Assembly (NCBI GenBank): GCA_002803225.1
Contig: NXFV01001370.1
Span: forward strand, 21,629 to 85,628
DNA: 64,000 nucleotides
From: Gamarada debralockiae
Taxonomy: Eukaryota; Ascomycota; Leotiomycetes; Helotiales; Hyphodiscaceae
Direction: 5' to 3'
The notes under the pieces are model-generated. The model was given only the letters and a program-made list of their open reading frames with translations, was not told the DNA's origin and did not search any database. Below, piece after piece: positions 3,438-35,053 of the stretch. Each line of letters begins with the position of its first letter. Position 1 is the stretch's first letter. The position numbers were made by a program, and so were the translations under genes.

Positions 3438-3913
3438 CTCGCGAAGCCTATGAAGGCTCGGTGTGTCGGGCTTGTTCAGAGGCTTGTGAATGTCTAGGAG
3501 CAATCAAAGAGCGTAAGGCGATGCTCGAGCGGTCAAGCCGATGCATAGCTCAGTTTTGTATGGTTTGGAGAGGCGGTACAAAGTATTACATGGATATCAT
3601 GTTGTGTGAATGCGAAGCATCCCCAGGTCCGAGAATAGCGTAAGGCTGGCGCTTCGAGTACATTCACCGACGTCTCATGCCGCAGTCTGTTATCGCCTTA
3701 TCAAGAGCGCTAAGGGAGTCATGTGACGCGTGGCTATTTCGTGTTTGGAAGTCGCGCTTAACCTCGTTCAAACCGAAAACAACAATCTTTCCACAAAGAC
3801 CTTGTTGCTCTTTCCAACTTTCAGTGTATGAAGAAATTTTCATACCGGCTTCCTTTCTATCGACCTTCCAAAGACCCTCGACCTCTCTGATTCGCACATT
3901 TGACTCATTTCTC
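3438..3913. promoter_or_regulatory. Divergent intergenic region
   Basis: 476 bases lie between the start codons of the Atg14-like gene (minus strand) and the coiled-coil gene (plus strand), so this interval must contain both 5' leaders and core promoters. An open frame from 3677 runs into the plus-strand gene but has no conserved-looking content. No specific regulatory motif is clear. Confidence 0.4.
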
Positions 3914-13211: not shown

Positions 13212-13879
13212 CTAAACTAGGTTCAAGTCGACCTTGAATTTGCACTCTTCGTCCTTGGCGTGTACATGATAGGAGCAGACTGGAAGGGTGCTTGGATCCG
13301 GAGGCATTGCGCTACTACACATGAAAAGCATCAGGTCTGATGTCAAATCCCCATGCTTCATCAAAAGCGCGGTTATCTCTGCCATGCTGTGAAAACCTTC
13401 ATCCTTTGGGCCGTATGATCGGGACGAAGAGTCTTCACTGCCCACTGTCTCAAAGGCGAGCCCGGAGCTGTGAACTAACAGATCCAATTCATTCCCTCAA
13501 GATTGAATTCCTTGTTTTGCTTCTTGAAGGCGGAGTGCAGCAAAGTTATTGTATGGTCCATGAGGTCAGGAAGGCAGATCGCTTCCGCCCATCCATAAAG
13601 TTTGATTAGTTCACCGCGAACTTGGACGGCATCCAAAGCTTTGGGGAAGCATCCTCGGTAGACCCATTGAAGAGGATTCAAGGAGTTGGGGTTGACTTCG
13701 GGTAATGTGGTGACTTGATCAACAGTCTCCTTGAAACCGTTGCTGAACATCTTTGAGAAGTAGCCAACGTTGGTGCTGAGCATTTCTGTGTGGACTCGGT
13801 AGTGCTTTTTGGAAGGTCTGGCATAGATGTCGACCATGTCAATACCGAGGGTGTCGCCAAATCCGAACCGGGAGATCAT
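13212..13879 (-). pseudogene. BTB/POZ-domain protein, probably broken
   Basis: From the ATG at 13879 the product reads into a BTB/POZ domain: DMVDIYARPSKKHYRVHTEM, LSTNVGYFSKMFSNGFKE, LPEVNPNSLNPLQWVYRG and KLYGWAEAICLPDLMDH. Small fungal BTB proteins use this fold for dimerisation or Cul3 binding. After MNWIC there is an in-frame TAG at about 13475. Beyond it, TAPGSPLRQWAVKTL in the same frame and then CSSAMPPDP / LPVCSYHVHAKDEE in a neighbouring frame match the usual C-terminal half of these proteins. So either one stop and one frameshift have broken the gene, or an intron starting GTTAGT removes the stop (an acceptor that keeps frame exists about 80 bases on). The GSPLR similarity inside that would-be intron favours decay. 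Confidence 0.65.
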
Positions 13880-15306
13880 GACGCTTGGGTCTGGAGTCGA
13901 AGTTGGGTCGAGGTTGGATTCGGGGTTGAGGCTGAGGTTACCTTTTTGATGCTGTGCTTCTGGCTTCTTGACCAGTTAGGATGAGAGAGTAAAGTTGGGG
14001 TCCAGGGGCTCGCCAGAGCAGATATAAACAGGGGTTAGCTAAAGTGAAGAGGAAATCTTCAATGTGTTTCGATGGGGTGTCTTTGCTGCAGAGTTCTAGA
14101 ATTCCTCGACCAGACCAGCCCTCCTCTAAGACCAAAGGTCTTCTCAGGCACAGATGTTTCGAATTATGATGAGCCGGTTGGGATTGGAGTCGACAATTTG
14201 AGGTTAAAATCTTCAATGGAGGTCATCGTGGGAACATAATGGGATCTATATATGCTATTTCAATTGCTGACTCGGTTTTGACGATTAGAATTAACTTGAT
14301 TATGATTCAGATACGGGTGAGAAGACGGATGGCGTTTGATTATATAAAATCAACAATCATTTGAAACTGAAGGCTACGTGGAGGAAGATTTAATATTGGC
14401 TTGACATTTACCTTTGAAAATAATTTTTAACTTGTCTTAGGATGTTGTTATGACAAGGAGGTATTGTTGTCGTTTTGTAGCTGGTTGTTGAACTTACCCT
14501 ACCGCAAGGTATATTAAGGTGGGGTTTAGGTTGAGGGAGCGGGAATGGGCTTGGAATAATAAGCGGCGTCTTTGCTGATAGGTGGATCTCACTTCTAGGA
14601 AGATGCCGAGATCTTGGTAATAGTTGTAGTTGATTCAAGAAGTACTCTCTGCTTGGGAGGAGGACCTTGCCGTATATTATAGGGCCCGCCAGGGAAAATC
14701 TTCCTGAACGGACGGAAATACCATCATGCGATATGAAAAATGAATCATTGGGTGGGCTTGAATGATTGAAAAATGACATTCAGGATTACACATGTGATCT
14801 GTGGTCTGGCGCCTTCAATGGCTCAGTCAGTTGGGACGATTAAAAATGCTGCGATCTCATGATTAGGGCATCAGGAGCACAGAGTTTTGAATCACTGAGT
14901 AATTTTGAGCTATTGAAAAAGGTTTGGCTCAGGCATGATGGTGGGAACACAAACGCAGAGTTTTGAATCATTGACTACTCTTGAACGAATGAGCCATGCG
15001 GATCGTAGGATATCTGTAACATGGCTTTTCAAGGATGAAGTCGGTTTGAACGATTGAAAGTGAAGGGGATCCAGAGGTAAAAAGCATTCTGTAAAATAGC
15101 ATTTCAATCACTCGGAACATTTGAACGATTGAAAGTTGGCAGGATGGTGCATTTCTTTATTTATTCGATACAAAAACCAACCCCTCAACTTTCTACTTTC
15201 TACCCCAGAGTATGTAGCCTTGTGTTAGATTAGTAAACAAGCTATCTAGTATAGTGGGTTACTACGAGATATTAGATATTTGAAATATCTAATAGACAGA
15301 TTCACA
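13880..15306. other. Non-coding stretch with degenerate repeats
   Basis: No gene on either strand. The last third contains recurring TTTGAACGATTGAAAG-like motifs, listed separately, and leads into the copia fragment. Confidence 0.5.
14750..15136. repeat. Degenerate direct repeats with a GAACGATTGAAAG-type core
   Basis: Similar short blocks recur: CTTGAATGATTGAAAAATG near 14758, AGAGTTTTGAATCACTGAG near 14881, AGAGTTTTGAATCATTGAC near 14957, TTTGAACGATTGAAAGTG near 15044 and TTTGAACGATTGAAAGTT near 15119. Spacing is irregular, roughly 70 to 130 bases. They look like a decayed tandem array or repeated insertion scars. Confidence 0.4.
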
Positions 15307-15482
15307 ATGCCACTACTCTATAATAACCAATCGGCTATAGCACTAGCTAATAACCCTGAAAACTATGCTAAGAGCAAGTATATCGACGTCCAATTTCACT
15401 ATGTATAATAACTGCTAACGTACAATAAGATTACAGTCGATTACTGTCTAATATCTTATATATTTGTGGACGCACTTACACC
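15307..15482 (+). mobile_element. Ty1/copia RNase H remnant
   Basis: In one frame this reads LLYNNQSAIALANNPENYAK then SKYIDVQFHYV, two stops, and ITVDYCLISYIFVDALT. This is the C-terminal end of a copia polyprotein: the RNase H DNQSAI block, the HIDIRYHFI-type block and the closing region before the 3' LTR. There is no protease, integrase or reverse transcriptase left and no LTR directly next to it. It ends 14 bases from the stop codon of the large gene on the other strand. Confidence 0.8.
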
Positions 15483-15496
15483 TCCCCAATCTCTGT

Positions 15497-18400
15497 CTAG
15501 TCTGAGTCCTCATTCTCAGTCGACACATCTTCTACCTTTCTCCCCGGTACTCTGCTTTTCTCCTCAGTCAATATCGTGACACTGAATCCACGACAGGTGA
15601 TATCAGCCTCCCTGATCTTCCCCATCAAAGCTTCCAATTCTGCCTCATAAATATCCCGGATTAATTGTTGACGGCTTAACAACGCCATGTCCAGATATCG
15701 GAGCACGTGCACACAGAGTGCAATGAGTGACTTCTCATAGTTGGGCTCTAAGCTCATTCCCGGCCATTGTTGATACATGCTTTCTAAGACATTGTATCTA
15801 GCGACAAGAGTCGCGATTTCAGAGATGTTTGCAAGCGTCTTGTTGCTTCTCGGAATCTCTCCCGTCATCTCATCGGTTTCTCTCCCCTCCAAAATTTCCT
15901 AGATTCTGATTAGGTTTGCGGATAAAGGTGAAGAATATTTGGACTTACCCGTGCCAGAGTACATAAACATGTCCACACAAAGGCGCCAGTTTTAAAATCA
16001 AGCGTTCCTTGCATGACTTTGAGGACCTTCGAAAATCGATCGATCATCTCGGTAGCTGTTCTCGAGCTTTCATCTAGCGATTCGCCCAGATGAGGTTGGA
16101 CTTCATTGATGAATGGTTTGAGGCGGGCTACAGTTATACTAGCCACGGAAGCCATGGAAGCGTCTGGGGGGAGCGTGGCGTTACTATGAGCTTCGGACCA
16201 AGCAGTGGAAATGTTCTCGGATTTGTTGGGGTCGCAAGCGTGAAGCTCCTGAAATCCTCGCAACCAGAGATCACCAGACGCCGCATCATTCGTGCGTGAC
16301 AAAGACATGACCTTTGCCGCCAGCGCCTCTTTCCGTTGCTGCCAATAGTTCACTTTTGGCGACGAAATATTACCAATTTTGCCAACGGGTGAAAAGTTGG
16401 TGGTCATTGTCCTGACTAGGTAACGAGCATCAAACTTTGATGTCCCAGTGGCCGTCGAAATATTCCGTGGTGGCTGATCACCGCCATTCCCTAACTTCTT
16501 TTGCCGCTCAAGACGCTTCTTGTGGCGTTCCTCTTTCTTCTCTCGGAACTCTCTTCTCTCGTGTCGCATCTCGCCCGCCTCCTCGATTCCCAGCGCCGCA
16601 ATGCCAACAGAAGCCGCATCTTGCAATCTAGCTTTCGCCTTGAGTTTCCGTGCCTCTTCCGGAGTCATCTCTCCTTCCTGCACAGCCTTGTGACATGCTT
16701 CACGCTTCTCCATGCTTTGATAGATGTTGTGCGCGGCATGGATTGTTGCAGCAGTTGATAAACCAGCCGTAAGGAGCTGCTTGCCTTTCATCTTCTTCTT
16801 GCGCTTCTCGTCAGATAGATCCTCTCCAGACGCTGCCGAAGAGCTGCTCGATATAGATGAACACCATGGAGAATTATCTTGAGTGTGAGACGATCCAGGA
16901 ATATATGTCTCATCGGGAAGCTGTAGAGGCGGTAAGTTCTCTGGGGCGGGCAGATTCAAGAGTGTAGATTCAGACTCTTCTTCTGGGCGGTGTTCTTGTT
17001 GCTGAGGTTCTGCGTGTATCTGAAGAGAAGAAGCCGAAGATGATGCAGCGCGTCTCTCGAGGTCTTCAAGACGTCTCTTGAGCTTCTTGCCTATATGATT
17101 TATCAGTCACTGCGGGGAGCCGAATATGGCGGAGTTACTCACGGTAATTTCTTTGGGCAATTCGGTTTTGGATCCGCCTGCGCTCAGCAATATCGGAAAT
17201 CTTGGTCCAATCCTCATATGGATTTGCAGAGCTGCTGAAAGCACTGCTGGTACTGTGGGTGGTGATATGCGTACCCGCACTTACATTCTCTCCTACCTTC
17301 ATTTCCATGGAGGGTCCGACATTCAGAGTTTGGTTGAGAAGCAAAGACGATCCTGCTGGCATCCTGTGAGCTAGGGGGAGGGAAGATGGAGGACCCGTTG
17401 ATGTGGTCGGAAGTCGGTGACTAAAAGAATTCCGCAGTGGTTGACCGCCGTACTCCATCATTGACTGGCCAGGCATCTGGGAAGGCACATTCTGCGTTCC
17501 GCCAAGAGATGATAACGGAGGAATGTTAGCGGGAAAAGGGTGGTGGGAACCAACGCTGCCAGTGTCCACCGAACTGCCCATTCCAGCTTTCAGAAAAGCG
17601 TGGTCGGAGTCGAAGTATTTGCGTTCTTTCAGGTACTTAGATAGGTGGTCGGACTTGGAAGGGAGCTTGCCATTAAGTCGAAAGAGGCGTTGCTCGTCTG
17701 CAGAAAGGGTCTGTATTTTAAAATTAGCAACAAGTTCTGCGAGTAAATTTAGTAGCTGGATATAGGTAGATCACCTACCGAAATGTCGACCTTGTCCTTT
17801 TTGAGGGAGTGAAGCGCTATGTCTTGTTTCGAAATAGGTTCATTAGATGCAGGCTGCGTAGTTTCCTTTCCGCCAGAATCGTCCCGGTACGATATTTGAG
17901 CGTCGTAACCTCCACCAACAACTCTCAAATCCATACTCTTATAATCGTTATCACTGCGTCCGACTTGCGATGGTTGATTGCGTGATGTGCGTGATGTGCG
18001 TTCTCCTTCAAATGCTCCAAAGCTGAGGGCTCCTCCACTTTGGGAATCTTGTTCTTCGGCTATCCTCATAGCTTCCAGACCAGCCGCAGCCTCGAGATCA
18101 CTTTCGTCCTCGTCGTCCTTGTCGGATTTCACGTCCAGACTTTGAGGCCGCGTGTTGGCCGCACTGAAAACTTGGGTCTCTTCAGGAATCTCCAAGATCG
18201 GCAACGCATCCGGCTCTTCTGAATCCGATAGGTTGGTGACTAGTGGGGAAGGAATCGCAGGAGGAACCCACGTTGCTGATGAAGGTCTAGCTATACCTCC
18301 ACCCAGTCTCGACTTCGGTGGTTTCGCCTTTAAAACGCCATAGGTACAAAGTAGCGATTCGCCCCTTTTGGTGCAGTTTCCACATGGCTCAGACTTGTCA

Positions 18401-21400
18401 CATCTCAATCTGTTCGTAATCAGTATCAATGAGACATCAAATGCAACAAATATCTTAAAGGAACTTGGACTGACTTTCTCTGTCGGCACCGGTCGCATGC
18501 CAGCCGAACACCACTTCGACTACGTTTCTTTGGAACTCCAGGCTCGGGGACTTGAGCTTGAGTTTGACTTAACGCACCGTCCGCAAGCCCTGAAGTTGGT
18601 GGGGGCGTCCATCCCACATTGTAGATCACGTGTGCGATATCCTTGGCTGTATTTATGGTGTCGACGGCCTTCCTAAAGAGTCCTTCTGACACTACATTGT
18701 CTTCGTCCTCTTCGTAAGGCATGAACATACCCGAAGCTCTTCGCATGCCAGATGGTTCTCCCACAAGACTTGATGAGGATCCAGATGTATGAAGGTTCTG
18801 AATTCGTCTCTGAGTGACTGCCATGCTATCTTTGCGGTTGGTGAAAGTATTCAGTGGTTGCCAATCCATATTCGCGTCGTTATTATCCTCATCCTCATCT
18901 GATCCTAACAAGATCCTCGTAGAGGGTTTCGACGGTCTCAATGTTTCCTGAAGAGGAGATGGTGAGAGTTTCCCATCATTCCACGGTCCATCGCTGTGCT
19001 TCATAGCCGTCTCCTGATGTTCCAGTTCTTCTTCGTCTTGTTTTCTTTTGCTGGTAGACGCATTCGTCATCATGACCTGACTTTCTTTCGCCTCTTTTCT
19101 CTGTTGGGCGATGTCACTCATATCAAAGAGTAAAGGCTCATCATCGGCTTCATATGCACTGGTGAAACTGTATCTATCGCCACCCGATCGCTCATTTGTT
19201 GTTGACGGTTTTGAGTCTGTTGGTGGTGCAATGCCATGCCCTCCAATTCGTCCCAATCGTGGGCGATACGGTGAGTTTACAGCACCGCTCGAGAGCCCCT
19301 GTGGAATCTGGGGAGCTTTCGGCTCATGGCTGTCAGCAGCAAGGATTGATGGTGAATTTACTTTGTCAACCCTGTGAAGATCAAGAAAAGCACTTAGGCT
19401 AGGTGCCTCTCGATCATCCACTCCTAGACTGGTGCTTCGGTAAATGCCAAATGAGAGATCTTCCAAGTCATCTTCAAAGGCAAGATGTCTGGACTGCTGA
19501 ACGTCGACACTGGATGTTCTTCGGTTGTGTAGGTCGTACGATCTTGGTGAAGTAGGGATGTCAATCGCGTTTGTCGCAAGGTGCCCAGGTTCTGGACATG
19601 GGGCTTGGAGACGTTCGAATCCTGTGTGGCATCTCTGATCAGCAAGAGCATCACCTCGCAGGTTGGATCGAGAGAGAATATTGGACAGAGGGAACTTACC
19701 ATCATCGATATGTCTGTGGTGTGTGATAATTTCTTGGTGGATTGAAGGCGCTCGGATAGAAGCCGGGGGAGACGGAGATGAAGATGTTGAGGGTGCTCGA
19801 GTTTCTCGTTCTATGACCCTAGTTCGCAACACCGCGTCGGAAGTGGAAGAACCAGAGCGATAAACCTGGGTTGAGTCTCGCCGCCTCGAGGCGCTTCGAG
19901 TTCGACTCCTTCCTCTTGCCATGCGTTCTATGGGATCCGCACGATCCTGAGCATACTTCACAGCAGCGGCAGCGGCGATTCCCGCAGAGGCAAGCGCGAG
20001 AGCACTCTTGAGCCCAGCAGGGGAGGAAGAACGCGAAGATCTCGATCTTGAACGACCTCGATCCTCACGGTATCGACTGCGTGCCCTGGTAGAAACCTCT
20101 GCGCCAATAGCTCCGAGCGCTGCTCCGCCCACAACATTTCTCCCACGATGTTCCTCTCCAACCTGAATTCTGTGGTTTGTAATTAAAACAGCAGCGCCGG
20201 CACCTGCCAAAGCACCCTCTGCCAAGTGCCTCTTGTGATCGGGTCTGTGGGTTTTGTCCTCTGAAACCTTGATCAGTTCTCTCTTCACGATATAGTCTGA
20301 GTCATCACTGTAGTACTCTCTATCGCTGACCCAATCCCCGGGGACTCTTTTCGTCGTTTTCGACGTTGTCATGTCTCGGCAATAGTAATAGTCCTCATCG
20401 TCCCTCGCTTCGTCGCTTTTCAACTTGGCGACCAGTGTAGCCTTTGTCTTCTGCGCCTTGCTCTTCTTGGCTGGCTTGTTTGCCGCTTTCTCTTCTTTCA
20501 TCTCCTCGGTCAAAATGCTGGCAGTCTTCTTGACCTGGTCATTCGGGAGCTTCTTAGCCAACTCCTTGCTTTCCTTGGCAACTTTTCTCCGCAATCTGCG
20601 AGCCGAGCTCCCAGATTCATCCACACCTTCCGATATCACGGGTTCCAAGTCTTCATCATCGGTATTGCTTCCAATGCTCTGGGCCATCGTCCTCTTGCCT
20701 ATATTCCCAGGGCTCTGTCGCTTTCTTCTTTTCTCTGCTCGCTTCCTTTGTTGCTGCTTCTCTGCATCAGAAGAAGACTTCGGTGCTTTCCCAGAGACCT
20801 TGCTGTCCGGGTCGCTCACATCGTTCAAGACCTCGCGAGTCAACTCAACATAATCGTATGCAAACTCTCCAAGCTCAGCATCGTCGATACCGAGGACTTC
20901 GGCTCCCTCCGATGCGCGCAACGAGAAACGAGGAATGAGGTTCATTAGCTTCTTCGTCTTCCCAAATTTCAACTCTGTCTCTTTGACCTCGTCGGGTAAT
21001 GGCAACCGTCCGAATGTCCGCTCATGAAACAAGTTCGGCCGCGTCATATTCCTCGTCGATTTCAGGATGTCGGAGAAATATTTGTCATGGCTGATATCGT
21101 CGCTGTCATCTGTGATGGGCTTTGGCATCTTTATTGGCGTTGCGGGCTGCTCAGCGGCTAAACGTGTCTGAGCTATTTCGTAAAATTGACTGGGGTCAGG
21201 TGCAGGTAGACACGATGCCCAAGCTTCTGCGGCGTCTCTGGTCATATTGAATTGCTTCATCGCCAACTCAACAATATCGGCTCTCCATCCAGCGATGAGG
21301 ATATTACTTTCGCTTTCTGCTCCTGGGGGAGGCGTGACTGGAGCCTGTAGATATCCGGTAAATGGGGAGGGGCTAGGACCGATGTTGTCCATCCGTCCTG

Positions 21401-22370
21401 AAGCATCCTTCGCCACAGCGGTGCTTCTCTCAGAGGACTTGAAGTTTCCATATGGGGTGTCTGTTGGTTCCGAAGCCTCGTGGCCATGTCTGGAGAAGGC
21501 ACTGTAGAATGATTGGACAGATGCCATGGCTTCAGGAAGTTGACCCAGCGTATTGACGTTCGGCATAGCCATCGCAGAAATGAATATTGAGGTATCGGAC
21601 TGTCCTACCTCCCTTGGTACTTCCATGGCAAGAGTTTGAGTGCCGTATGTAAAGGAGGTTGCCGACGATGAGACCGATAGTGAAGTAACGGGCGGGCCCA
21701 CTTCCTTTTCCAGAGACTCCACGCTTCTCCGATCCTCTGAACTGGCATGACTTGTGGAAGCCGTAAGAGTCGTGCCAGACATGTCCTCCGACAAAGAAGT
21801 TTCAGACTTCTGACCCGCCGAAATACTTGCCAGCTTCCTCCTCGTCTCCTCCACCTCCTCGTCCGTCTCCTTCTTCAGCTGTTCATCCTTCGGTCCATCC
21901 AACAAACTCGGATTAGGCACACCCATCGCATCCATCATATGATCCGCCTTCAACGCACTCAACAAACTCAACGTGCCCATAAGGCTCAATTTCAAATCCC
22001 TCAGCCTCGCCAACAACTTCATGATTTCCTTCTCCTTGAACACCCATTTTACCCTCGCCAAGAAGCTCCCACTTCTCAATTTCCGCAAAATGCGATCGAT
22101 TTTGACACATATTGATGCACAATCACCAATGATCTTCGCCGTGAGTCGGTACAGCTGGTCGGAATAGCGATGCGTCTTGTCGTCCAGGAGGCTGGAGAGG
22201 AGATGCAACTCCTCGGCAAACGTCTCGAGATCTCGCGCTAGGTCTTTGATGTCGGATGGGGCGTTGGAGAGAGCATCGCCGACTTCATAGAGGGTTTTTG
22301 ATATAGAATAGACTGTCGCGGCTAGTTGCAGGACACTGGCGACGGAGCCGATGACCTCGAGGCCGGACAT
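15497..22370 (-). CDS. Giant predicted fusion: STAND N-terminal domain, DUF3824-like, Zn2Cys6, endosulfine-like, bZIP-like, helical C-terminus
   Basis: Six exons (22370-19700, 19621-18475, 18409-17779, 17710-17143, 17090-15949, 15898-15497) are in phase at every junction and give 2,186 residues. Order: fungal STAND N-terminal domain (about 1-150, MSGLEVIGSVASVLQLA); charged linker; DUF3824-like Gly/Ala helices and RS-rich tract (about 710-815); FRKAVDTINTAKDIAHVIYN (about 1225); Zn2Cys6 cluster ACDRCRQRKLRCDKSEPC with CGNC and LLC (about 1265-1298); endosulfine-like segment LSADEQRLFRLNGKLPSK, ERKYFDSDHAFLKAG (about 1484-1535), whose FDSGDY phospho-motif is altered; bZIP-type basic region RRRIQNRIAQRNYRKKLKRR (about 1660-1690) without a long zipper; EGEMTPEEARKLKAK repeat-type helices; and a DUF7708-like helical end without a NACHT P-loop. 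The intron at 19622-19699 (78 bases) has no stop. Two or three separate genes is the alternative, but no stop codon separates them. Confidence 0.7.
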
Positions 22371-23389
22371 GGTAGGAATTTCATGAGCATTCAGCCCAGG
22401 CCATCGAATGGATCATGGAAAGACAATTGTCGCCATACATGGTGAACATTCCATTCTAAGGAGTCGTTTGAAGAGAGGTGCATGGCGATGGAGGAAAGGA
22501 ATCAATTGTGTTGAAATGGTGTCGATGTGATCGCAAAGGCTGATTGTGGCGCAGTCGAGGCTGACTGGCGAATTTGCAGGGGCATGGACGATGCCTTTAC
22601 TCTACCTTCACCTCATGATTTAGACTTCCAGAGACTAGAATACAGGGAAAGCTTGAGGTCTAACGTATTCTTTTGTTGCGCTTGCTAGTGTGGGAGCGTG
22701 GAACTTAGAGATGGCTCTAATGCTAAGGCAAGAAATCGGTAATTTCGATCTTGCTCGGTGAAATTGTCAGTTGGGCGGGAAAAGACTCGATTGATTTCTA
22801 AAAATTAGGAGGGGGGACAACCCCTCTTATGCTACAGGGAGAAGCAAAAACGAGCTATACCCAATATGGCAGTTCCAACTAACAGAAATGTAGGAAGAGT
22901 GAGGTTGACTAAGTTGAAAAATACCCTTGGGGTCATTAGGACTTAGACTTTGCTGTTCTACACTAAGAAACAAACGGAGAAACCAGGGATTCTCTCTCTT
23001 CATCAACCCAGGAGAGATTGCCGCACAGCCAGGGCCGCTGGTGAAGTATTCAGCTATGGTCTTTAGATCAGGGAAGCTTAATGTCTCTCTAATCAGAGGC
23101 CAGAAGTAGTGTCACTTTAGTATAACACCTCTCTATAATCTACTACCCATTGGTATATAATGAGCCCTGTGGTCTATATATGTTGCTCTTAAGCCTGGCA
23201 GTAACCCTCTTGCCTATAGAAAACCCTTTCTCCTTCTCCCCTTGGGCGTCTATATATACTGCCTGTCATACTCTAATCTCGCTTAACCCTAGGGATATAA
23301 GGCTTTTAAAGCATATTAAACCTAATATTTATATCCTTAAAGTATATTTAATTAATTAAAAAGAGCTATATTTATTTAATTATGGAGTT
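22371..23389. other. Promoter of the large gene, then AT-rich repeat-like DNA
   Basis: The first few hundred bases are the upstream flank of the giant gene. From about 22800 the sequence becomes repeat-like. At 23108-23175 a stretch beginning GTCACTTTAGTATAACACC, with GGTATATAATGAGCCC further on, resembles the terminal repeat of a pogo/Fot1-type element, but no matching partner is visible. No gene. Confidence 0.4.
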
Positions 23390-23830
23390 GGTTTTAGTAC
23401 GAGTTAGCGTTCTAGAGCTTAGTCGTACGCAGGCCACCATGCTCCCTATGCGCTTACTTCATGCGACATACGTCCTAAACCGAAGCCTAAACTCATGGTC
23501 TATGTCCTTCACCCGCTTCTTGCCATGTTTCTTGTTTCCATGCTCACGTACAGCCTTCTGGTTCCGCGTCTTGAAGTCACAGTCCCGGCACTGGAATCCA
23601 TCGACAACGGGGAGAACAGGCTGTGGAGATGATCTGTCCCGTGGCAGTGGCACGCTCTGGGCGTTGTACGGCCACGGCCACTACTCGACATACTAGTCCG
23701 CCTGTCTGCGCACCTTGATTTTCACCTAGTGCTTATCGCGCAGATGGCGGCTGAGGGCGCCCGGGCTAAGCGCATGCTAGCAACCGCTGCCGTGGCATAG
23801 CAGCACATGATGTTCATCGTTTAATGTGAT
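23390..23830 (-). pseudogene. DUF3505-type zinc-finger gene remnant (repeat-associated)
   Basis: Read on the minus strand: LNDEHHVLLCHGSGC, then HALSPGALSRHLRDKH, and after a gap LPVVDGFQCRDCDFKTRNQK with AVREHGNKKHGKKRVKD. The two C-x2-C...H...H-like modules, the second introduced by a DG-x-x-C motif, are the pattern of the fungal DUF3505 (orsellinic acid/F9 cluster) domain, which is often found in repeated, subtelomeric RecQ-type helicase elements. Four TAG codons interrupt the frame (after HGSGC, after LRDKH, and on both sides of YVE), and a TGA follows YVA. CAG-to-TAG and TGG-to-TAG changes would explain the TAGs and fit RIP. No helicase part is present nearby. Confidence 0.65.
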
Positions 23831-24099
23831 CCACGGCTTCAATGCGTCGGGCACAGGCAGGAGCAGTGGCAGTGATTGATCTACCATCATAAATTTGCTC
23901 AAATGGTAAGAATTGGAGTGGGTCCGTTACATGGTAAAGAAGGGGGCAGTGGCACAGACCCCATCGCTTAATTTCCCCCACCCCCCAAAAACGCCATTTC
24001 TGGGTAATGGGGGGCGCCAGAAGGTTAGTCATAGTTTAGGAATGGTTGGTTGACTACAATTCAAGACCACGATCAGGCCAGCCAATTAAAGCTGTGCCT

Positions 24100-24850
24100 G
24101 CAGAAAAGTCTCAATTTTTTGAACCTTGAGTTGAAGGGCAGTGCAAACTGCCAACTTGCCTCAACAGCTCCATTCGCTCTTACTCAAGCTGTGAACGGGT
24201 CCACAATTATTGTTAAAGCCAATAAAAGACTCATATAGCTCAGGAGTTCAACTTTTTGATTCTTGATATCAAGAGCAGTGCACTACGTAGTTGCCTAGAG
24301 CTTCTCAGGGCCCACATCTGGCCCACTGAAGTCAATGAAAACCTGATTTAACAAGCAGTCTCAATTTTCGATTCTCTGGTTGGGCATCAACCCCGCATCA
24401 ACCTCGCATTGCGGGATAGTGAATTCCCTTCACGAAGCGAACGGGATTGAAAGCACGAACATCTGATTGTACCAATAGAAGGTCCTCCCGGGAAGAAGCT
24501 TCAATCTTTTGACCCCTGATTTCAAGGACAGTGCTATCTATTCCGATAAAACAGCAGTCACCTCACCCGAAATCTCCTGTCCATTATTCCCCTAGACGGC
24601 AGTCTCACGTCGATAAAAAGCCCATTTTCGGTAAGGAAGCGAATGGAAAGTATTCTGGGGGAACTTTGCCAACTTCCGGCTGCTACATTGAAGGGCAGTG
24701 TTCTCATACCCAACCTAGGCGACAGAGACTTTAGAGGGAGGAGAGAAAATAGCCAATAGAACAAAGCCCTAGTAGCAGCTCTTTAATTTTCACGCGTAAT
24801 TTCAAGGGGATGCAATACAGCAAGCCATCTCCTTCTGTTCCAATCACTTT
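24100..24850. repeat. Degenerate tandem array, unit about 130 bases
   Basis: A block with a T-rich start, then TTTTTGA, TTGATTTCAAGGGCAGTGC-like sequence recurs near 24108, 24245, 24357 (partial), 24500, 24690 (partial) and 24783. Between the blocks, sequences such as CTCACCC and CAAGCTG share loose similarity. The spacing of about 110 to 140 bases suggests an old satellite or tandemly duplicated element. The surrounding DNA (23831-25167) has no gene. Confidence 0.45.
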
Positions 24851-25167: not shown

Positions 25168-28100
25168 TCAGGAGTGGAGCACCATAGCCTGACATTATAT
25201 CAGCTCTGATCAATCCAGCAAGTCTGCGGTCCCCAACTTACCTTGAGCTGTTGAAGTTGTTCGAGTCTCTGGGACGAGCTATTCGCATCGAATCCCCCAG
25301 ATGCAAGCCCGAGTTTCCTCTGTTGCTTATTCTTCACATTCTAATATCAAAGCATTAGTCATCAAAATAACCAAAATCTTGACTTCAGAGCTTACTTCTT
25401 CTATTGTTTTATCCATAACGTAGCGTATCACGGTCACGGGTCTCTCTTGGCCAAGTCTGAAAATCCGACCAATGGCCTGACTCTCGATAGATGGGTTCCA
25501 CTGAGGCTCGAGAAGGTAGATACGACTTGCGATGGATAGATTGTTGAGTCTGACCTGTAAGCTACGCTCATTGAAAGATAGGTGAAGAAGCCACTTACCC
25601 GACAGCTCCTGTACCCAAAGTCATGAACAGAACCCCAACTTCCGGGTCTCCTTGGATTCTGATAGAACTGTCTTGCGTTTTCCGAGAGAAAGAGAGCCGT
25701 CGATACGGCAGAATCGGACCCCATTGGCATTGAACAAACCTCCAGCGAGATCAAGACTTTTCTTCCAGTAAGAGAAAACAATACTATTCTGGTAGTGAGC
25801 TATGATACTATCACACGGAATCTTAGAGACGAGGTAAATACCTTTTCTCGTGCAGAGGGTTTCTTTGAATGTCTTTGAGCAAAGCTAACATTTTTGAAGG
25901 ATATGTTTTCCTTGAAGCAGTTCCTGACACGTAGTGTCCCATTTCTTCTCCAAGAACATTCCCCATACCATGCTCTTGATAGCAGAAGAGACATGTTTGT
26001 CTGCCATCTGATTGACTCTTTTCGAGTTCTTGTTGGTACTGCGAGATGCATTCGCCGCAGATCAGTTGACGACATTCGGTCATGTGGGCAAGATCTGGAC
26101 TCTCAAATACCCCTACCGACAGGATATCACAAGAGCAATACTTGCAGACAACTTCTCCGCTTTGTTGAAGAAGGCTCATGATTTCTTCCGGGTCCAAACA
26201 AGATGCTGAGGACCTGTCGTTTTCTTGTGGCAAGCCATTGTTGCAATATAAACGAAGTCGGAGCAAAGCTTCGATGATTCTTTGGTGCGTTTCCTTAGTA
26301 TTGTGGCCGCTTAATGCAAGATCAAGAGCAATCCTACCCTTGTGCGCAAGAAGGTTGTATTCCTGTCGCTCCAAAGCGGAAAACTGCAGTGTTCGCTCTT
26401 CCAGCTTCAAATCAAACAAAGACAAAATAGCCTTGCTACGCCGAAGACATATCGATCCGAGCAGGACACGGAGATTCTCGAAATCGGTTTGGAGATTAAT
26501 TTTTGATTTATGCGAAATGCCGTCAATGTAAAGATCGCTGGCTCCTGGAGGATTGGCACGCCCAGGAAGGCAACGAGCGCACCGAGATCTGCCAGCGTGT
26601 TTTGGATAGGGGTGCCAGTCAGACACCACCGAATATGAGCGGAGATTCTGTTCACAGCACGGAATTGTTTGGTCGACAAATTTCGAATCACATGTGCTGG
26701 AGAATCGTGAGCAGACGTACTTAGGTCAATAACTTGAGATCTTGGTTCTTGAGACTGCCGTACCTTCATCGATAATAAGGCGATACCATCTGATGCTTTC
26801 CAGGACGTTTCGTGACCGATTAAAGTCTGCAACCACAGTTCCATATGTGATGAGAACAACATCGTATTGGAAAAGATTGAAAGGACTTTTACGTCTATCT
26901 TGTCCATGATATTTGCAGTACCCTAGATTACCTCGAAAGACATGTCTGTGGATATCAGCCTTCAAACTTTAGAGATGTTAATGTCAGGAGGAAGTCAAAC
27001 TTTTCAATTTCCTCGATCCAGCTATCGAGCAGCACTATGTTGTATCAGTTCCATCAAGAGGACCCATCATTAGGAGGACTAGACTCACACGCAGAGGGTA
27101 CGATGATCAATGTGGTCCTGGCAGTGCTTGGACCTTCCCCGAGGGGCCCGATGCTGGACCGTCGCCCAGCATACTCGCTTGCTCGAGTAAGAGATCCCAT
27201 GATGGCACATAGCATGGTCAACGACTTGCCGAGGCCCATATCATCCGCCAAGATACCACCCAGGAAATCGTTTGGGGTTGGGCTTTTAGCTCCTGTAATG
27301 ATGTGCTGGTAACTATGATTCGGAACATTGTCAAAAGCAATTCGATGCTTCTCAGCTGTTCGGAGAGAGAGAGAGAGATGCTTGACTTACAATTGGAAAT
27401 CCTTGCCTGACGTCTGGCACTTCCAAAGGCTTCGTGATTCATGTGAGCTCGGAGTCTCACGTCGGACTATGAAATCAACTGCTTCTTTTTGGTGGCTAGA
27501 CCTCTCAGCTGTGGCATGTTAGGTTGGAATCATAAGACCTTTACCTTATCAACGGTGTCTTGATGCGATAATCCACATCTCCTTGAGTCAGGTACTCATG
27601 CCTCGGAAGCTGCTCTAGAAGTCCATCAAAATCCGTAAGTCCGCCGTTCAAAGCCGACAGCTGCTCCTTTTCTGATATGCCTGAAACTCCGACTGTGGAG
27701 ATCTGCGAATTTGGAAAGACAGGCGTTTCCTTCACTTGTACGACGCCGGGAAGGTGGAGGTATTGAGGGTTATCATAGGGAAGGGAAGTGGTCCCCTGGT
27801 GAGGAGGCTGTAGGAAAAGCCCAGCTCGGGATAACCCTCTTGCCGTCGTATCCAGCTCGCATCGTGGACTTAAAATATTTACGTCCAGGCTAATACAGCT
27901 TGGTTTCGAATCTTTACCGGCTATACAGATTCTGTCCTTCCAGTCGTTGCAGCCTACCAGAGCGATATATTCCAAGCCTTGGAAACAGGGCAAGCCGGTC
28001 AACGAGCGAAAAAGCCTGTTGTTCAAAAGTCCAAAAGCACGCCCTTCTTTCGTCTGCAGTACGCAATGTTTTTCATTAAACGAACATTGGAGAGTCAGGA

Positions 28101-29008: not shown

Positions 29009-30172
29009 CTGCCTAACTTGTACCTGTTGCTCTACGTGGTCATTACCGTGTCAATAGCAATTCCTTTATACCTCTCGAGTATATAAGTACATATATATAA
29101 TACCTAAGAGTCCTAGCTAAACAATTGATGGGTTTTGAGAATCAAGACAGCTAGAGTAGCTGACGACACTAGATGTAGTAGCTACAAAGGGCTAATAGGA
29201 CGGACGCGAAGCTTATGATTTGGGTACACACACATTAGGTTAAGCTGGGAAATTAAGGGTTAAATTAGTTATATTAAAATAGGTTTAGGTTGTGTTTAGG
29301 GCATGTTTCTATTCTTATGCTTAAGGGACAGGCACTTATTAGGGGGGGGGAAGGACCTTCTGTTTCTCCAAAGCCTTCTTGTGTCCAATCATACCAGGCT
29401 TGATGACCCGGTTTGCATCGTACTTCTGGCGGAGATCTGGATCGCTCAACACAGCATGTGCCTTCTCAGCCTGAGCCCAATCCTCCTTCACCTGCTCAAT
29501 AACCCTACCGTCCTTCGACATCCACTGGTTCTTGCCAATCTCGGAATCCGGAGAGTACAAGCTTGCTACTAACCGTTAGTCAATCGCTCAATTCAAGTCA
29601 ACGATTGAGAACAAAACTTTGGAGCGGAATCCCCGCATGATTGAGTTGGCTGCGACCGCAGGGTCCACGCCCAAGTCCTTATAGTAATCACGCTCGTAGT
29701 CAATGACTAGCTCCTCATTTTCGGCTTCCGGCTCCTTGACACCCTTGACTTCATTGAAGTTTGCAGGCCAGTAGTTGAAAGAGAAGGCTTTGGCATCATC
29801 GTAGATGTGGCGGAGGTAATCATTGGAGAGAATGTCGTATGCCTCTCGCTAAGTTGGGGTGACTTCTTCGAGAACGCGGAGGCGGTTGAACAACACGGTC
29901 TTGGAGGCATCGCGAGAGATTCCAAGCTCTTGGTAGTAATCTCTCGAGTAGTTAAGAACAGTCGTATCCTTGGCATGGGAGAGATCTGGGGCATTGGTAT
30001 TGACTAGTTGTGGTGGAGTAGGAGCCGACGTCTGGGATGGCTGCAGAAGGGAGACGATATCCATGCGGGTGGGAGAAGCGCTCTTTTGGGAAGACGCAGT
30101 GTTCTTGGATTGAGCTGGCTGCACAGGCATGCCGAGACTGGCTTGGGAGGTTGCGGTGTGACGAGAAGAAGT

Positions 30173-30180
30173 CTTTGTTC
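30173..30180. repeat. Target-site duplication (left), CTTTGTTC
   Basis: Eight bases CTTTGTTC directly before the left terminal repeat of the hAT element, identical to 35054-35061. Confidence 0.9.
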
Positions 30181-33100
30181 CAGGCTGGTCAACGATTCCT
30201 GAGGAATCGATTCCTTAGTAATTAATACTGGGATCGGAATCGAATCGGAATCGATCGATTACCTATCGATTATTCAGTATAGAACACTAATTTTCTAACC
30301 CCGCTCTCTCTTCTCCCTCTGATCTTTATATGTACTACTTATATAGTCATAGATTTTGATACAAAATTATCCTTTTCGACTTCTTTAGTCACTCCTTCGA
30401 TAACCTAAGACTTAGTTCATACGAAAGTATCTAAAAAATCAGCACAAACTAGAAAAGACATCAATCCCGTATAGTAACACAGTCGCGCAGCAAACGATAG
30501 AGAGAACACAAAGCATTCTTATTGTATACACTATACGGAGGACCTAATCTTTATATAAATATTAGTATAAATATACGAAAACACCTTATAAAACAACACG
30601 AGATTCACCCTCCAATTATACGAAGTCGAGTCGAATTAGAAGCAACTGCCCAATTATAACGATTATACCTTAGTACGAAAAGAGATAGTAACAATATAAA
30701 CGAGTTTGATACTTTAGTTTTTCAAGAATATCTTAATTAAGAGGTAATTGATAAAGCTTTAGTTTTATTGGTCGTTATACGAAACCTTCCTTTTCGAGCT
30801 ATCGAATGGCCGGAATTATATACCCTTTGTCAAGCAATGAACCTTAAATTGTCTAGTTCTATTACAATAGCGCACTCTTCGTTAGCAAGGAAGGTTAGCT
30901 CTTCTTGGCAGACTTATTAAGATACCGTACAAAAGAAGCTTTAGTTTGCAATATCGAGTATTCATTTTTTACTTAATATTTGGACGTCTCCAAATTGATA
31001 TTTACTCCTCGGTATATACGCTCATTTCGTCGCCTATATACAAGAGTATTTCAAAGCTCTCCTTGCCCTTCTAACAGTAGCAAATCACACAAGAGAGAAG
31101 CAATTTAATACTCTCTTGCTAGTTCTCGTAGATTATAGTATTATACGGAAGATTAGAGTAGTTATAGGTAATAATTCTAATATAAACGATACTCTTTATC
31201 GTGCTATTAAGGACTATCTATAGGAACATAAAGTAATTGAATAGAATACGAAATATCGACGAATTCGTTATACGGGCTATATTATTAATCTATTTGTTCA
31301 AGCCTTCTTGTTTTAATCTTTGATTGAGATAGACTAACTCGAGGTATATAATTACAAAGAAGAATAAGGAGAACTCGAAGATATAGAAGATTAACGATAC
31401 GTTTTTTAACTATTAGGGCTACTTAGTAAGCTTTATAATATCGTCATCTATATTTGCAGTTCTACTGGTCGTACAAAAGAGTTTGTAGTAATAGCAAGTC
31501 GAATGATTCTACTTGACAACTGAACGAAATGGAATAGCTAGTATCTATTGCTAGTTGTTGCTATTAATAAGGAAGCACCCCTTGATATATATACGAAGTA
31601 ACACTTCTTAGATCTAAAGGCTAATTACCTTGATTCTGCTAATTAGGAGAGACTTTGTACTATCAAGGTATTCCTTTAGCTATTTCACTGTACAACTCTC
31701 GAGACTAAAGGAGATAAGGCTACGATTGATTGTGTTTTATTTATAATGGATATTCTTGTTTATTACTTTTAAACTTCACTTATAAGTAATCTCTATCCCT
31801 TTTGAGAAGAAAGTTATACTAATTTCGTATAAAGAACAACTTCTCTTTAAACAATAACTTTTAAGCTTGAATTTAAAAGGGATAGGAGACCTTCAATAAG
31901 TATTACTACAAAATAGACGACTTTCTATACTATACTACCACTCTTATTCTTTATCTAAACCGCTGTACGAAGTATATACACGCAAATTAGAAGCCAAAGT
32001 AGGTTAAACCGATCTTGAAAAAGGTTAAAGAGCTATAGGAGATATATCGAGAGAACGCTTTAACTTCACTTGAGCCTATTGCTAGATCGCCCTTGAAACG
32101 AGAGCCTAATATATTTGATTAAATTGCCCAAGATTTGAGAAAGTATACTTGACTAGCTAGTCAAGACGAATATAAAGACTACTATAATAGTAAACTATAT
32201 AATATTAGTAAGATGCAAGCACTTGAATAGTGGTACCAAGATTAATAACGAAAGCGCTAGCCAAGACTATTATATATAGCAATCGATATTCTTTTAATTC
32301 TTGTAATAAGCGCTGAACTAGAGCGTGTATTTTCAGGAGTATGTTGTATAATAACATAGGATAAAGTATAGTTAGGAGAGGAGATGATCGAGAAGAGAGA
32401 GTGTTTGAAGTATTAGAAACGAAGTAGTATTTTGTACGAAACGATTTAAGTCTTTTAGTCTAATAAATAGCTTTGTCTACTTTTCTTTTGTTTTTCTTTA
32501 ATTAAGTTAGTGTGTATTATAGATAGCGAAGATAATTTAGACACGAGAGCCTAGAATACCTATAGTAAGTATAGAGATGTTCTTGGCCTTGTTTTGAGCT
32601 TAGCGTCGACGTGGTTTTACTTATGGCACTGAACAAAGATAGAACTCCGTAAAGAGAACTACTAGGGTGGGAACTCAATTCTATTGTACTAAAAATAGCG
32701 AAGTTACAATTCCCCTTACTTAGCGTCGACGGAGAACGAATTCTCTGGCACTAAGAATCTTTGCATATTTGAGCTAGTACTAGCTATTTTAGACCTCTTA
32801 CGGCATGGAGAGTGTAGTTAGGGACTTAGATACTTAGTAGAGGCAGGGAGGAAGAGCAAAACGCCGAATCGCAGACAGAATTGAGTACCCAAAAAGAATA
32901 AGGAGGGAATTACCCCCCTTAAAAAAGAATGAAACGAGTCTAATGAGAGACTGCCACCCCCTCCTTAGTCTGGTGTAATTGAATTTCAACTCTGCACTAG
33001 AGGAGTGCACAAGCCCATTGGGAGAGTTTAACGGCCATTCCGTAGGTAGTAGCAATCTCTCATCAGACAAGTCTGAACCTGGATAAGAGTTAGCTAACAC

Positions 33101-35053
33101 AAAAGTTATAGTCGATCCGCTAGGACCTAAAAGAAAAGATAATAAAACAGTAAACAAAGACAAAAGGAAAGATCCAGGGTCTAGTCTAAGGAGAGAGGCT
33201 AGTCTAGCTAGTCTAGTGAGTCTAGCAAGCCTAGGAAGTCCAGAAGGAGTTGGCTAAGGGAGCGGGAGGTCTGTTTGCTTTAGCAGAAAAGAGATAACAG
33301 GGAAGGACGGGGGTTTTGACAAGACATGGACACGCAGAGGGCCGAGGCTTGCCGTAAGAGAGATTATAGTGAGGGCTTAGGAGAGGCGACTTAGTAACTA
33401 AATATTGTATTTTCCCGAAGGAAGTGCGTTTGAAGAAGTATCTAAGAGGCGTCTATATGTTTCCGAGTACGTCGTTGTGTACTAATGCCTTGTTAGGAAG
33501 GGAATACTTCTCGTTGAAGCCTTCACCCACCTACCCAAGAGTGTGTGTTCGAAGAGAGGTCGACCTTTGTGTGGTAACGTTAATATAGCGAGGTTGATTC
33601 GAGGGGAAGGGAAGGAAAGAAGGAAGGAAGGAAAGGAGTTTTTGTTCGAAGATCGAATTGAGGGCGAGGAGTATATTCGAGGAGTATGAATTGAGGGCTA
33701 GAAGGATCGAGGATTTTGATTTAAGGTGAAGGCGAAGCTATATGCGTGGTTAGTCTGAAGTTAACTTGAGGGGAGAGGAAAAGAGAAGGAACTTCCTAAC
33801 GTTGTCGATTACAAAGGAGGTAGAGACGTTGTCGATCGATGAAAAGAACCTTAAGGAATGTTAGATTGTTTATATAGCGAGAGGGAATATAACTTCTAAG
33901 GAGGAAATACGCTGCAGGGCCTGAGGTCGAAGTGAAAAGGTCGAAGTGAGAAGGTCGAGCTCTGGACTGAAGGTCTGTTAGTAATAATGACGGAAAGGAA
34001 ATACTTAATTGAGCTAGGGCGAGATCGAGTTAATGGCGAAAGAAAGAAGATAATATTATCGATAGAGTTGTTATTGAAGTCGATTAATTGAAAGTGTTGA
34101 AGTTGTTGAAGAGTTGAAGGAGTGAGGTTTAAAGGCTCTTCTTTTATAGGTGTTAGGTAGCGATTGTGAGAGAATAGGCAAGCTAATTGCAACTCGCTTA
34201 CATTGAAGTTTGTATTGATGTTTGCTTAAAGGCGACGAGGTTGACGTTATTGACGTTGTTGATATTGTTGAGGGACGATTATATAGCTGGCAGTATATCT
34301 AAGCTTTTGTCGAAGAATCCTTCTTTTCTAATAACTAGATTATCTATCTCTTTTATATATATATATAGTCGACAATTATATCTTTTGTTTTAGTTTCGGG
34401 TCGTAATTAAGTATTTGTCCTTCACTAGAGTCACGTACGATAACTAGTGTAATTTCTATAATATTAGCTAGCGCTGAGTAATTCATACATTTACTAAAGA
34501 GGCTAGCTAGCTAATCAATTAATTATTTCATTAGCTAGCGCGTTAGAGGCAAAAAAAAGCAAAAAAATATTAATACCTAGATTTCAATTCGAGTCAATTG
34601 AGTACCTTATTCAAGTGTTAAATCAATTCGTGAGAGTGTTTATAATTAGTTTATCTTTATTTATCCGCAGTAGTCAACAGACCTTAAAGAGGAATTCCTA
34701 GTAAAGGATTTTATCCTCTCAAATTTAAAGTTCGAAGGATAGTTAGATTTACTCACGTGCGACGCGCATGACACGCCAAAGGAAACTTTAATTAGTTACA
34801 CCAGCTAAGTATTTGTTTTTCAAAATCTCCTTATTTAAATATATATACCTTTTAACGAATTTTCCTAACATCGCGATTTTACGACTAACCCTTTGTATAC
34901 ATTAAAATAATTATTTCTAATCACGAGATTTTTGTTATACGAATTAGGACTAGTGCCTAGAGAATCGATACGGAATCGACCGATTCCGATCTGATATCGA
35001 TTTTTTACCGATTCCTTATCGATAAGGATTAGTAAGGATTTTTGACCAGCCTG
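30181..35053 (+). mobile_element. RIP-decayed hAT transposon
   Basis: Left end CAGGCTGGTCAA (30181-30192) and right end TTGACCAGCCTG (35042-35053) are perfect 12-base inverted repeats, flanked by an identical 8-base duplication: the hallmarks of the hAT superfamily. Both ends carry subterminal clusters of ATCGAT, GAATCG and GATTCC, likely transposase-binding sites (inference). The element is 4,873 bases, very AT-rich and holds a decayed transposase on the plus strand (about 30560-32460). The 2.5 kb after it (32460-35040) holds no recognisable gene, only short frames, an AGTCTAG repeat near 33180-33230 and a purine run near 33610; it may be a nested, also decayed element. Confidence 0.92.
30560..32460 (+). 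pseudogene. hAT transposase, decayed
   Basis: Recognisable blocks on the plus strand in order: LPFRAIEWPELYTLCQAMN near 30800, ISSIHFLLNIWTSPN near 30960, YLLLGIYAHFVAYIQEYFKA near 31000, VVIGNNSNINDTL, YTGYIINLFVQAFLF near 31290, a W-to-stop-rich NxKPKxVKP block near 31985, and the C-terminal hAT dimerisation block ISAELERVFSGV with LGEEMIEKRECLKY near 32310-32420. Nearly all internal stops are TAG, many at positions where a Trp is expected (TGG to TAG) or where Gln is plausible, which is CpA to TpA change on one strand or the other. No intact frame remains. Confidence 0.85.

What the first reader, a model, noticed from the sequence alone, without database searches (positions are those of the whole stretch)
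15497..22370. A single 2,186-residue reading path fusing STAND N-terminal, Zn2Cys6, endosulfine-like and bZIP-like segments
Six exons on the minus strand join in phase at all five introns with no stop between domains that normally live in separate proteins. A STAND N-terminal domain and a DUF3824-like region are followed by a complete Zn2Cys6 cluster, an endosulfine-like segment, a bZIP-type basic region and a DUF7708-like helical end without NACHT. Carrying two DNA-binding-type motifs, an endosulfine-like part and two STAND-type ends in one chain is very unusual. It could be a signalling hub linking non-self or stress sensing to transcription, or a recent run-together of two or three genes.
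Basis: partly seen in the sequence, partly recalled or inferred. Interest (0 to 1): 0.85.

Follow-up and report, generated by a model that had tools for sequence, protein, structure and literature searches.

The report
Fungal gene patched from self-gene fragments
This fungal gene keeps two fixed ends but has filled the space between them with in-frame DNA fragments, some with their introns, copied from many ordinary genes of the same fungus, possibly as baits for attackers.

Summary
The reading path is real: six exons, five GT-AG introns, 2,186 residues. It is not a run-together of two or three genes. Residues 1-391 and ~1941-2186 are conserved ends of a fungal protein family (39 homologues; C-end detected in 29 of 39). 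The slot between them is a mosaic: 1,229 of 1,549 residues match fragments of 14 genes on 14 other contigs of the same genome, at 47-82% protein identity. Donors include endosulfine/Igo1, an ammonium transporter tail, eIF3j, an Rgf3-type RhoGEF and a Myb protein. Homology runs through three introns inherited from three donors, so genomic DNA was copied. Three clear paralogues have middles from other donors, including HapB/NF-YA. Among relatives with 97-100% identical N-ends, middles range from fully alignable to unalignable. One disordered donor used as control is not tiled. The N-end is a predicted four-helix bundle weakly matching PF17111 (formerly Helo_like_N). Best reading: an immune-like sensor with a refilled slot of self-derived baits. 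The mosaic is shown; the bait function is inferred. A tolerant, near-neutral spacer is a serious rival.

The parts
21198..22370 (-). N-end, residues 1-391: conserved end, predicted four-helix bundle (1-148), weak PF17111 match, conserved hydrophobic first helix
16288..21197 (-). Variable slot, residues ~392-1940, mosaic of captured fragments
20952..21104 (-). Piece 1, residues 423-473: tail of a predicted membrane-type protein on C675 (57%)
20791..20945 (-). Piece 2: C-terminal tail of an ammonium transporter, C911 (DNA 76%)
20578..20696 (-). Piece 3: unnamed protein, C197 (DNA 71%)
20428..20567 (-). Piece 4: eIF3j, C213 (DNA 76%)
19893..20345 (-). Piece 5: DUF3824 protein, C452 (DNA 69-70% in two blocks)
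19593..19826 (-). Piece 6: arginine-rich protein, C604 (DNA 75%), includes intron 1 inherited from the donor
19622..19699 (-). Intron 1 (78 nt), homologous to donor C604
19111..19580 (-). Piece 7: C991, Atg13 by recalled features (DNA 75-78% in three blocks)
18605..19023 (-). Piece 8: C138, Reg1-like by recalled motif (DNA 76%)
18337..18500 (-). Zn2Cys6 cluster, residues 1265-1297, straddles intron 2; no close donor found
18410..18474 (-). Intron 2 (65 nt)
17863..18125 (-). Piece 9: Rgf3-type RhoGEF, C60 (DNA 75%)
17500..17807 (-). Piece 10: endosulfine/Igo1, C171 (DNA 74%), includes intron 3; FDSGDY reads FDS-DHA
17711..17778 (-). Intron 3 (68 nt), homologous to the Igo1 intron
17428..17504 (-). 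Piece 11: Myb-type protein, C4 (DNA 74%); overlaps the Igo1 match by 5 nt
16983..17270 (-). Piece 12: bZIP-type basic region, C892 (DNA 85%), includes intron 4
17091..17142 (-). Intron 4 (52 nt), homologous to donor C892
16855..16919 (-). Piece 13: Fungal_trans-type factor, C760 (DNA 82%)
16479..16813 (-). Piece 14: C901 protein (DNA 81%)
15497..16287 (-). C-end, residues 1941-2186 with intron 5 (15948-15899): conserved end, helical in the model of homologue P0029

Best explanation
The gene belongs to a family with two conserved helical ends and a variable slot between them. SHOWN: the slot is filled by sense, in-frame DNA copies of fragments of at least 14 ordinary genes on 14 other contigs of the same genome, three of them with donor introns; paralogues and homologues carry other fragments, different intervals of the same donors, or similar pieces in another order. 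INFERRED: the N-end is a HeLo-like, membrane-active or oligomerising four-helix bundle of the sort that heads fungal immune receptors. The slot displays copies of regulatory proteins (nutrient, stress, transcription, translation) as baits. When an attacker's protein, or a non-self partner's, binds or modifies a bait, the ends are released and start an immune or cell-death response. New fragments enter the disordered slot by DNA-level copying and stay if the frame remains open.
For: Mosaic map against own genome. Intron-through homology with three donors. Paralogues C385, C805 and C515 with the same ends and other donors. 39 homologues with the N-end, 29 with a detected C-end; Pfam domains other than the ends above cut-off in 10 of 39: eIF_4G1, Zn_clus, HLH, GATA. 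Middles far less alignable than N-ends in many close pairs. Atg13 pieces from different donor intervals, and Rgf3 copies closer to the donor than to each other. HapB pieces also in a C1019 gene without these ends. Control: a disordered 1,084-aa donor matches only itself and the window. dN/dS 0.10-0.43 in the 10 unsaturated of 14 pieces. Four-helix N-end with hydrophobic first helix; PF17111 at E <= 0.05 in 32 of 39; PF17111 listed as Helo_like_N in PMC9815663 (passages).
Against: No NACHT or NB-ARC match was listed for the window, the 39 homologues or the paralogue frames scanned. PF17111 is above cut-off in only 2 of 39. Fold searches gave generic helical bundles only. Younger copies show weak constraint (C515 HapB piece dN/dS 0.41; C385/C170 0.42; window C604 piece 0.43). 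Some close pairs keep the middle (B. calthae/B. cinerea 96% covered, B. elliptica/B. sinoallii 100%). No expression, binding or cell-death data.
Confidence: 0.5

Rival explanations
1. Tolerant spacer. The ends work on their own and need only a long disordered linker. Stray DNA copies from repair or replication that happen to be in frame are tolerated there; the identity of each fragment does not matter.
For: dN/dS near 0.4 for several pieces; middle predicted with pLDDT under 50 in homologue P0029; endosulfine motif altered; donors and pieces look mostly disordered (sequence).
Against: dN/dS 0.10-0.21 in 7 of the 10 unsaturated window pieces, below the ~0.5 expected for a drifting copy of a conserved gene; the same regulators recur as donors (Atg13, Rgf3, HapB); six cysteines of the zinc cluster kept.
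Confidence: 0.3
2. Competitor or scaffold. The pieces bind the partners of their donors and tune nutrient, stress and transcription pathways; the ends only localise or oligomerise the protein.
For: Donors are regulators: ammonium transporter, eIF3j, RhoGEF, Myb, endosulfine, HapB, SET/PHD, Rtt106 type; several pieces look constrained.
Against: Middles often differ between close relatives, which a pathway component would not be expected to do; the Igo1 phospho-motif is altered.
Confidence: 0.13
3. Transposon-made chimera: a Helitron- or Pack-MULE-like element collected the fragments.
For: Such elements are known (recalled) to carry fragments of several genes with introns.
Against: No inverted repeat of 16 nt or more in window 13500-24500; flanks of the four members compared are unrelated except for 222 columns just 5' in window and C385; all 14 pieces are sense and in frame. 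Helitron ends were not searched for specifically.
Confidence: 0.04
4. One reading: a signalling hub with two working DNA-binding domains, or a recent run-together of two or three genes.
For: Intact zinc cluster and a basic region in one spliced frame.
Against: Donors survive as separate genes on other contigs and only fragments are present; both ends sit together in 29 of 39 homologues.
Confidence: 0.03

Closest known systems
Integrated-decoy NLR receptors (plants; proposed for Sordariales, PMC12258605, passages seen)
   Same: An immune-type N-terminal domain in one chain with domains copied from the organism's own genes; that paper argues a kinase domain came from CHK-2.
   Different: No nucleotide-binding domain found; at least 14 donors in one chain instead of one; a fixed slot between two conserved ends.
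Fungal HeLo-like (PF17111) and Goodbye-like N-terminal domains of NLR/STAND proteins (PMC9815663, PMC10197012, passages)
   Same: Four-helix bundle with a hydrophobic first helix; PF17111 matches in 32 of 39 at E <= 0.05.
   Different: Above the curated cut-off in only 2 of 39; no NACHT partner; C-end matches NACHT_N in one homologue only, below cut-off.
Transposon-captured gene chimeras (Pack-MULE, Helitron; recalled)
   Same: Fragments of several genes, introns included, joined at DNA level.
   Different: Conserved protein-coding ends, all pieces sense and in frame, no element ends found.
Exon shuffling in NB-ARC-TPR genes of brown algae (only as cited in PMC10197012)
   Same: Immune-type genes that renew a variable part.
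   Different: Here the new parts come from unrelated genes, not from other copies of the family; the original paper was not held.
Endosulfine/Igo1, Zn2Cys6 and bZIP proteins
   Same: Homologous fragments; two above Pfam cut-offs.
   Different: Fragments only; endosulfine motif altered; no Fungal_trans domain and no Pfam bZIP match in the window protein.

Membership tests
Integrated-decoy NLR | NACHT or NB-ARC nucleotide-binding domain in the chain | tested here: not met
   No such match listed for the window (E <= 1) or for 39 of 39 homologues and four paralogue frames (E <= 0.05)
Integrated-decoy NLR | extra domain copied from another gene of the organism | tested here: met
   14 donors on 14 contigs, intron homology
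Integrated-decoy NLR | copied domain is bound or modified by an attacker's protein | not testable with these tools
   needs binding experiments
HeLo-like (PF17111) domain | score above the curated cut-off | tested here: inconclusive
   window 16.4 against 27.2; P0004 32.2 and P0029 33.7; 32 of 39 at E <= 0.05
HeLo-like (PF17111) domain | four-helix bundle with hydrophobic N-terminal helix | tested here: met
   helices 3-33, 39-63, 71-99, 103-148, mean pLDDT 75; hydropathy
HeLo-like (PF17111) domain | fold match to solved HeLo/MLKL-type domains | tested here: inconclusive
   only generic helical bundles listed
HeLo-like (PF17111) domain | membrane targeting and cell death | not testable with these tools
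   bench test needed
Endosulfine/Igo1 | Pfam Endosulfine profile | tested here: met
   56.7 bits, cut-off 29.8
Endosulfine/Igo1 | FDSGDY motif (importance recalled) | tested here: not met
   FDS-DHA in the window, FDSGDY in the C171 gene
Zn2Cys6 transcription factor | six-cysteine cluster | tested here: met
   34.1 bits, cut-off 21
Zn2Cys6 transcription factor | fungal-specific transcription factor domain in the same chain | tested here: not met
   no such match at E <= 1
bZIP transcription factor | Pfam bZIP match with zipper | tested here: not met
   none at E <= 1; basic region known by homology to C892 only
DUF7708 STAND-type end | Pfam DUF7708 match | tested here: not met
   none at E <= 1
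Pack-MULE / Helitron chimera | terminal inverted repeats (Pack-MULE) or element sequence shared by the copies' flanks | tested here: not met
   no inverted repeat >= 16 nt in window 13500-24500; flanks unrelated except 222 columns 5' in two members
Pack-MULE / Helitron chimera | Helitron end motifs and insertion site | not tested
   no specific search was made

The most novel reading that the evidence does not exclude
These fungi keep a germline 'self-bait library': a fixed pair of immune-type helical ends around a slot into which genomic fragments of the cell's own regulators are repeatedly copied, introns included, and turned over between related species, so that one sensor guards many pathways at once.
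Probability: 0.35. Interest if true: 0.95.

Novelty: categorically new. Interest (0 to 1): 0.86.

Why it matters
Integrated decoys are known as single domains on NLR receptors. A host gene with constant ends and a dedicated slot holding pieces of a dozen or more unlinked self genes would be a new way to build protein diversity, and possibly a new surveillance design in fungi. Because donors and copies sit in the same genome, captures can be dated, the mechanism read from junctions and introns, and the bait idea tested piece by piece. It would also explain database names in this family ('Sterol uptake control 2', 'GATA-type', 'Zn(2)-C6') that may rest only on a captured piece.

Tried and rejected
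Run-together of genes: rejected; donors survive elsewhere and only fragments are present. Artefact of gene models: rejected; single open frames hold an end plus foreign pieces (window 1,328-aa frame; C515 844-aa frame with HapB core and C-end). Assembly error: hard to reconcile with pieces diverged by 18-53% in an open frame. Low-complexity matches: the one disordered control gave no tiling. Transposon: no ends found, Helitron ends not specifically sought. DUF7708: no match. Fold searches with two models gave generic helical bundles; no HeLo, HET-S or MLKL entry was among the rows listed, which decides nothing. A PDB profile search with A2 matched mostly outside the N-end and was set aside. 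The C-end alone as query found only 4 proteins, against 29 of 39 by local BLAST. Zn_clus donor: only weak family matches, best 46%. C16 (L021) has weak, broken matches to both ends, perhaps a degenerate or 'empty' member; not pursued. Literature: nine searches listed no paper on such multi-donor mosaics; I saw listings and abstract openings, plus passages of PMC12258605, PMC10197012 and PMC9815663. The library holds no preprints and few subscription papers.

Limits: no cDNA. Only the window's own genome could be searched for donors. admit only proteins of limited length, and one search scored only the 7,982 candidates sharing most words. Orthology among members is not established and gene models are as deposited. 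dN/dS is pairwise Nei-Gojobori; 4 of 14 rows are saturated. Copy-to-copy and copy-to-donor identities cover different column sets. C805's donor C121 is known only from its search rows. The names Atg13, Reg1-like, PacC-like, Ahc1-like, caspase-like, the class Leotiomycetes and the meaning of FDSGDY are recalled.
Full report
1. Observation. The minus-strand path 22370-15497 splices into 2,186 codons and a stop with five GT-AG introns. Pfam finds Endosulfine and Zn_clus above cut-off and a sub-cut-off PF17111 at the start. The genome (G000, 54.3 Mb, 1,112 contigs) has two endosulfine matches: this one and a stronger one on C171 (96.5 bits), so the window copy is a second one.

2. The ends. Searching for relatives gave five proteins with the whole chain and 39 with the N-end region of one of them. 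The named ones come from Leptodontidium, Hyphodiscus, Phialocephala, Mollisia and a Mollisiaceae species, Cadophora, Coleophoma, Lachnellula, Rutstroemia, Botrytis/Botryotinia, Sclerotinia, Monilinia and Ciborinia (Leotiomycetes, recalled). All 39 match the window's N-end (P0038 from residue 20 on); 29 of 39 also show the C-end. Of the ten that do not, nine come from sources lgn, ena or jgi without species names, and one is P0023 of Sclerotinia nivalis. The window's own genome has matches to both ends at four more places: C385, C805, C515 and a weak, broken one on C16. N-end identities to the window are 76, 76, 52 and 37%; the first three have different middles.

3. The middle. Searching the genome with the slot in four pieces and mapping the matches gave 14 donors on 14 contigs: C675, C911 (ammonium transporter), C197, C213 (eIF3j), C452 (DUF3824 protein), C604, C991 (Atg13, recalled), C138 (Reg1-like, recalled), C60 (Rgf3-type RhoGEF), C171 (endosulfine/Igo1), C4 (Myb), C892 (bZIP type, from its sequence), C760 (Fungal_trans factor) and C901. 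They cover 1,229 of 1,549 slot residues. All 14 also match at DNA level (67-85%). Of the 13 neighbouring pairs of pieces, four lie within 12 nt of each other, one of them (Igo1/Myb) overlapping by 5 nt. Domain names come from Pfam unless marked: 8 of the 20 frames scanned there gave no hit at E <= 0.01 (L035, L058, L057, L028, L029, L030, L073) or only a sub-cut-off one (L034).

4. How the pieces came. Homology runs through three introns: intron 1 with C604, intron 3 with the C171 endosulfine gene (beginning near its probable start codon), intron 4 with C892. So the source was genomic DNA, not mRNA. A DNA search, which has no frame bias, found 15 matches: itself, 5 to paralogues and 9 to 8 donors; all 8 belong to the in-frame, sense map. 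By chance one piece in six would be sense and in frame. Synonymous differences from the donor (pS) run from 0.36 (C901) and 0.43 (C892) to 0.78, against 0.58 for the window/C385 N-ends, which suggests capture at different times; codon bias and saturation limit this.

5. Paralogues. C385 holds pieces of C197, C452, C644 (DUF7514) and C170; C805 pieces of a gene on C121 (76-80%, zinc-finger type); C515 pieces of HapB (C138 near 105 kb; 80% over 278 residues, 70% over 327 columns), of a SET/PHD gene (C411) and of an Rtt106-type gene (C156). A gene on C1019 that was not among the matches of either end carries a HapB core piece too, 69.5% over 128 columns; its other part looks caspase-like to me (recalled motif, no Pfam support).

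6. Homologues. Pfam domains other than the ends are above cut-off in 10 of 39: eIF_4G1 (P0001, P0002, P0003, P0006), Zn_clus (P0002, P0013, P0021, P0027, P0038), HLH (P0005, whose only PDB match at E <= 0.01 is Pho4) and GATA (P0026); 29 of 39 show none. Against the donors held here, 11 of 39 match at least one at E <= 1e-6. P0009, a metagenome protein, has an Atg13 piece 85-86% identical to G000's gene, placed before its DUF3824-type piece, the reverse of the window's order. P0003 and P0010 have Rgf3 pieces, P0011 a HapB piece. P0008 shares the stretch matching window 606-891 (73%), so part of the slot is inherited. Rgf3 copies match the donor at 61-63% over about 100-127 residues (P0003 only 39% over its full 285 columns) but each other at 32-34% over longer alignments. 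Atg13 intervals differ (donor residues 383-587, 315-628, 308-420). This is what separate captures would give, though faster change after one capture is not excluded for Rgf3. Among 17 Sclerotiniaceae-type members (136 pairs, the 45 with the most similar N-ends printed), pairs with N-ends 97-100% identical range from 100% to 0% of the longer middle covered.

7. Selection. Pairwise dN/dS of window pieces against donors is 0.10-0.43 in the 10 of 14 rows that are not saturated, 0.10-0.21 in seven. Paralogue pieces: 0.20-0.42 in the six unsaturated rows against donors, plus 0.22 for C1019. A drifting copy of a fully conserved donor would give about 0.5. So several window pieces look constrained, while C515's pieces (0.31-0.41) hardly do. 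Ends: 0.12-0.28 where not saturated. The 5' flank just upstream is 80% identical between window and C385 over 222 columns, although synonymous sites of the N-end differ at 58%.

8. What the ends are. The N-end model is a four-helix bundle. A hydrophobic first helix is kept in 38 of 39; P0038 lacks the first residues. PF17111 matches 32 of 39 at E <= 0.05 and is above cut-off in 2. PMC9815663 lists PF17111 as Helo_like_N and NACHT_N as a Goodbye-like profile (passages). [quoted passage not shown] In the model of P0029 the C-end is about eight helices; one homologue's C-end weakly matches NACHT_N (P0010, 22.7 against 30). Fold searches cannot decide.

9. Interpretation. Shown: conserved ends, a mosaic slot, DNA-level capture with introns, and different middles in paralogues and many homologues. 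Inferred: an immune-type sensor with baits. The strongest rival is a tolerant spacer; what speaks for it (weak constraint on some pieces, disorder, altered Igo1 motif) is given above. The Igo1 change also fits a bait that must not act.

10. Novelty. It works somewhat like an integrated-decoy receptor but fails a defining test (no nucleotide-binding domain found). It resembles transposon-made chimeras but shows none of their marks that I tested. Nine literature searches listed nothing like it, in a library without preprints. I rate the arrangement, constant ends around a slot of many self-gene fragments, as a kind of its own, with the function open.

Noticed in passing
window 47535-50902 (+): A fungal NLR in two overlapping frames: NPHP3_N/NACHT (139.6 and 28.3 bits), GPIID_WHD and ankyrin repeats, about 25 kb from the mosaic gene. 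Its first ~170 residues show no significant similarity to the mosaic N-end.
   Followed up: partly
L078 73-2175 (G000 C1019 near 67.9 kb): A different gene, caspase-like by a recalled motif, also carries a HapB core piece (CBFB_NFYA 80 bits), so capture may not be limited to this family.
   Followed up: partly
window 22389-22604: A 5' flanking block 80% identical to that of paralogue C385 over 222 columns, more alike than the synonymous sites of the N-end.
   Followed up: no
L021 (G000 C16 near 62 kb): Weak, broken matches to both ends about 500 bp apart with little between them: perhaps an empty or decayed member.
   Followed up: no
window 1845-3503 (-), 40251-41678 (+), 25826-26725 (-): ATG14 gene (368 bits), a Zn_clus + Fungal_trans_2 factor, and a sub-cut-off SNF2 match.
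   Followed up: no
window 30001-35000: Mostly AT-rich stretch, GC 0.32-0.38 in four of five 1-kb blocks, contents not examined.
   Followed up: no
P0002, P0016, P0026, P0037 (database names): Source names such as 'Sterol uptake control 2', 'putative binuclear zinc transcription factor', 'GATA-type' and 'fungal specific transcription factor' on members of this family may come only from the middle piece.
   Followed up: no
window 14858-15136: Short direct repeats (59 nt at 73%, 17 nt exact) just downstream of the gene.
   Followed up: no
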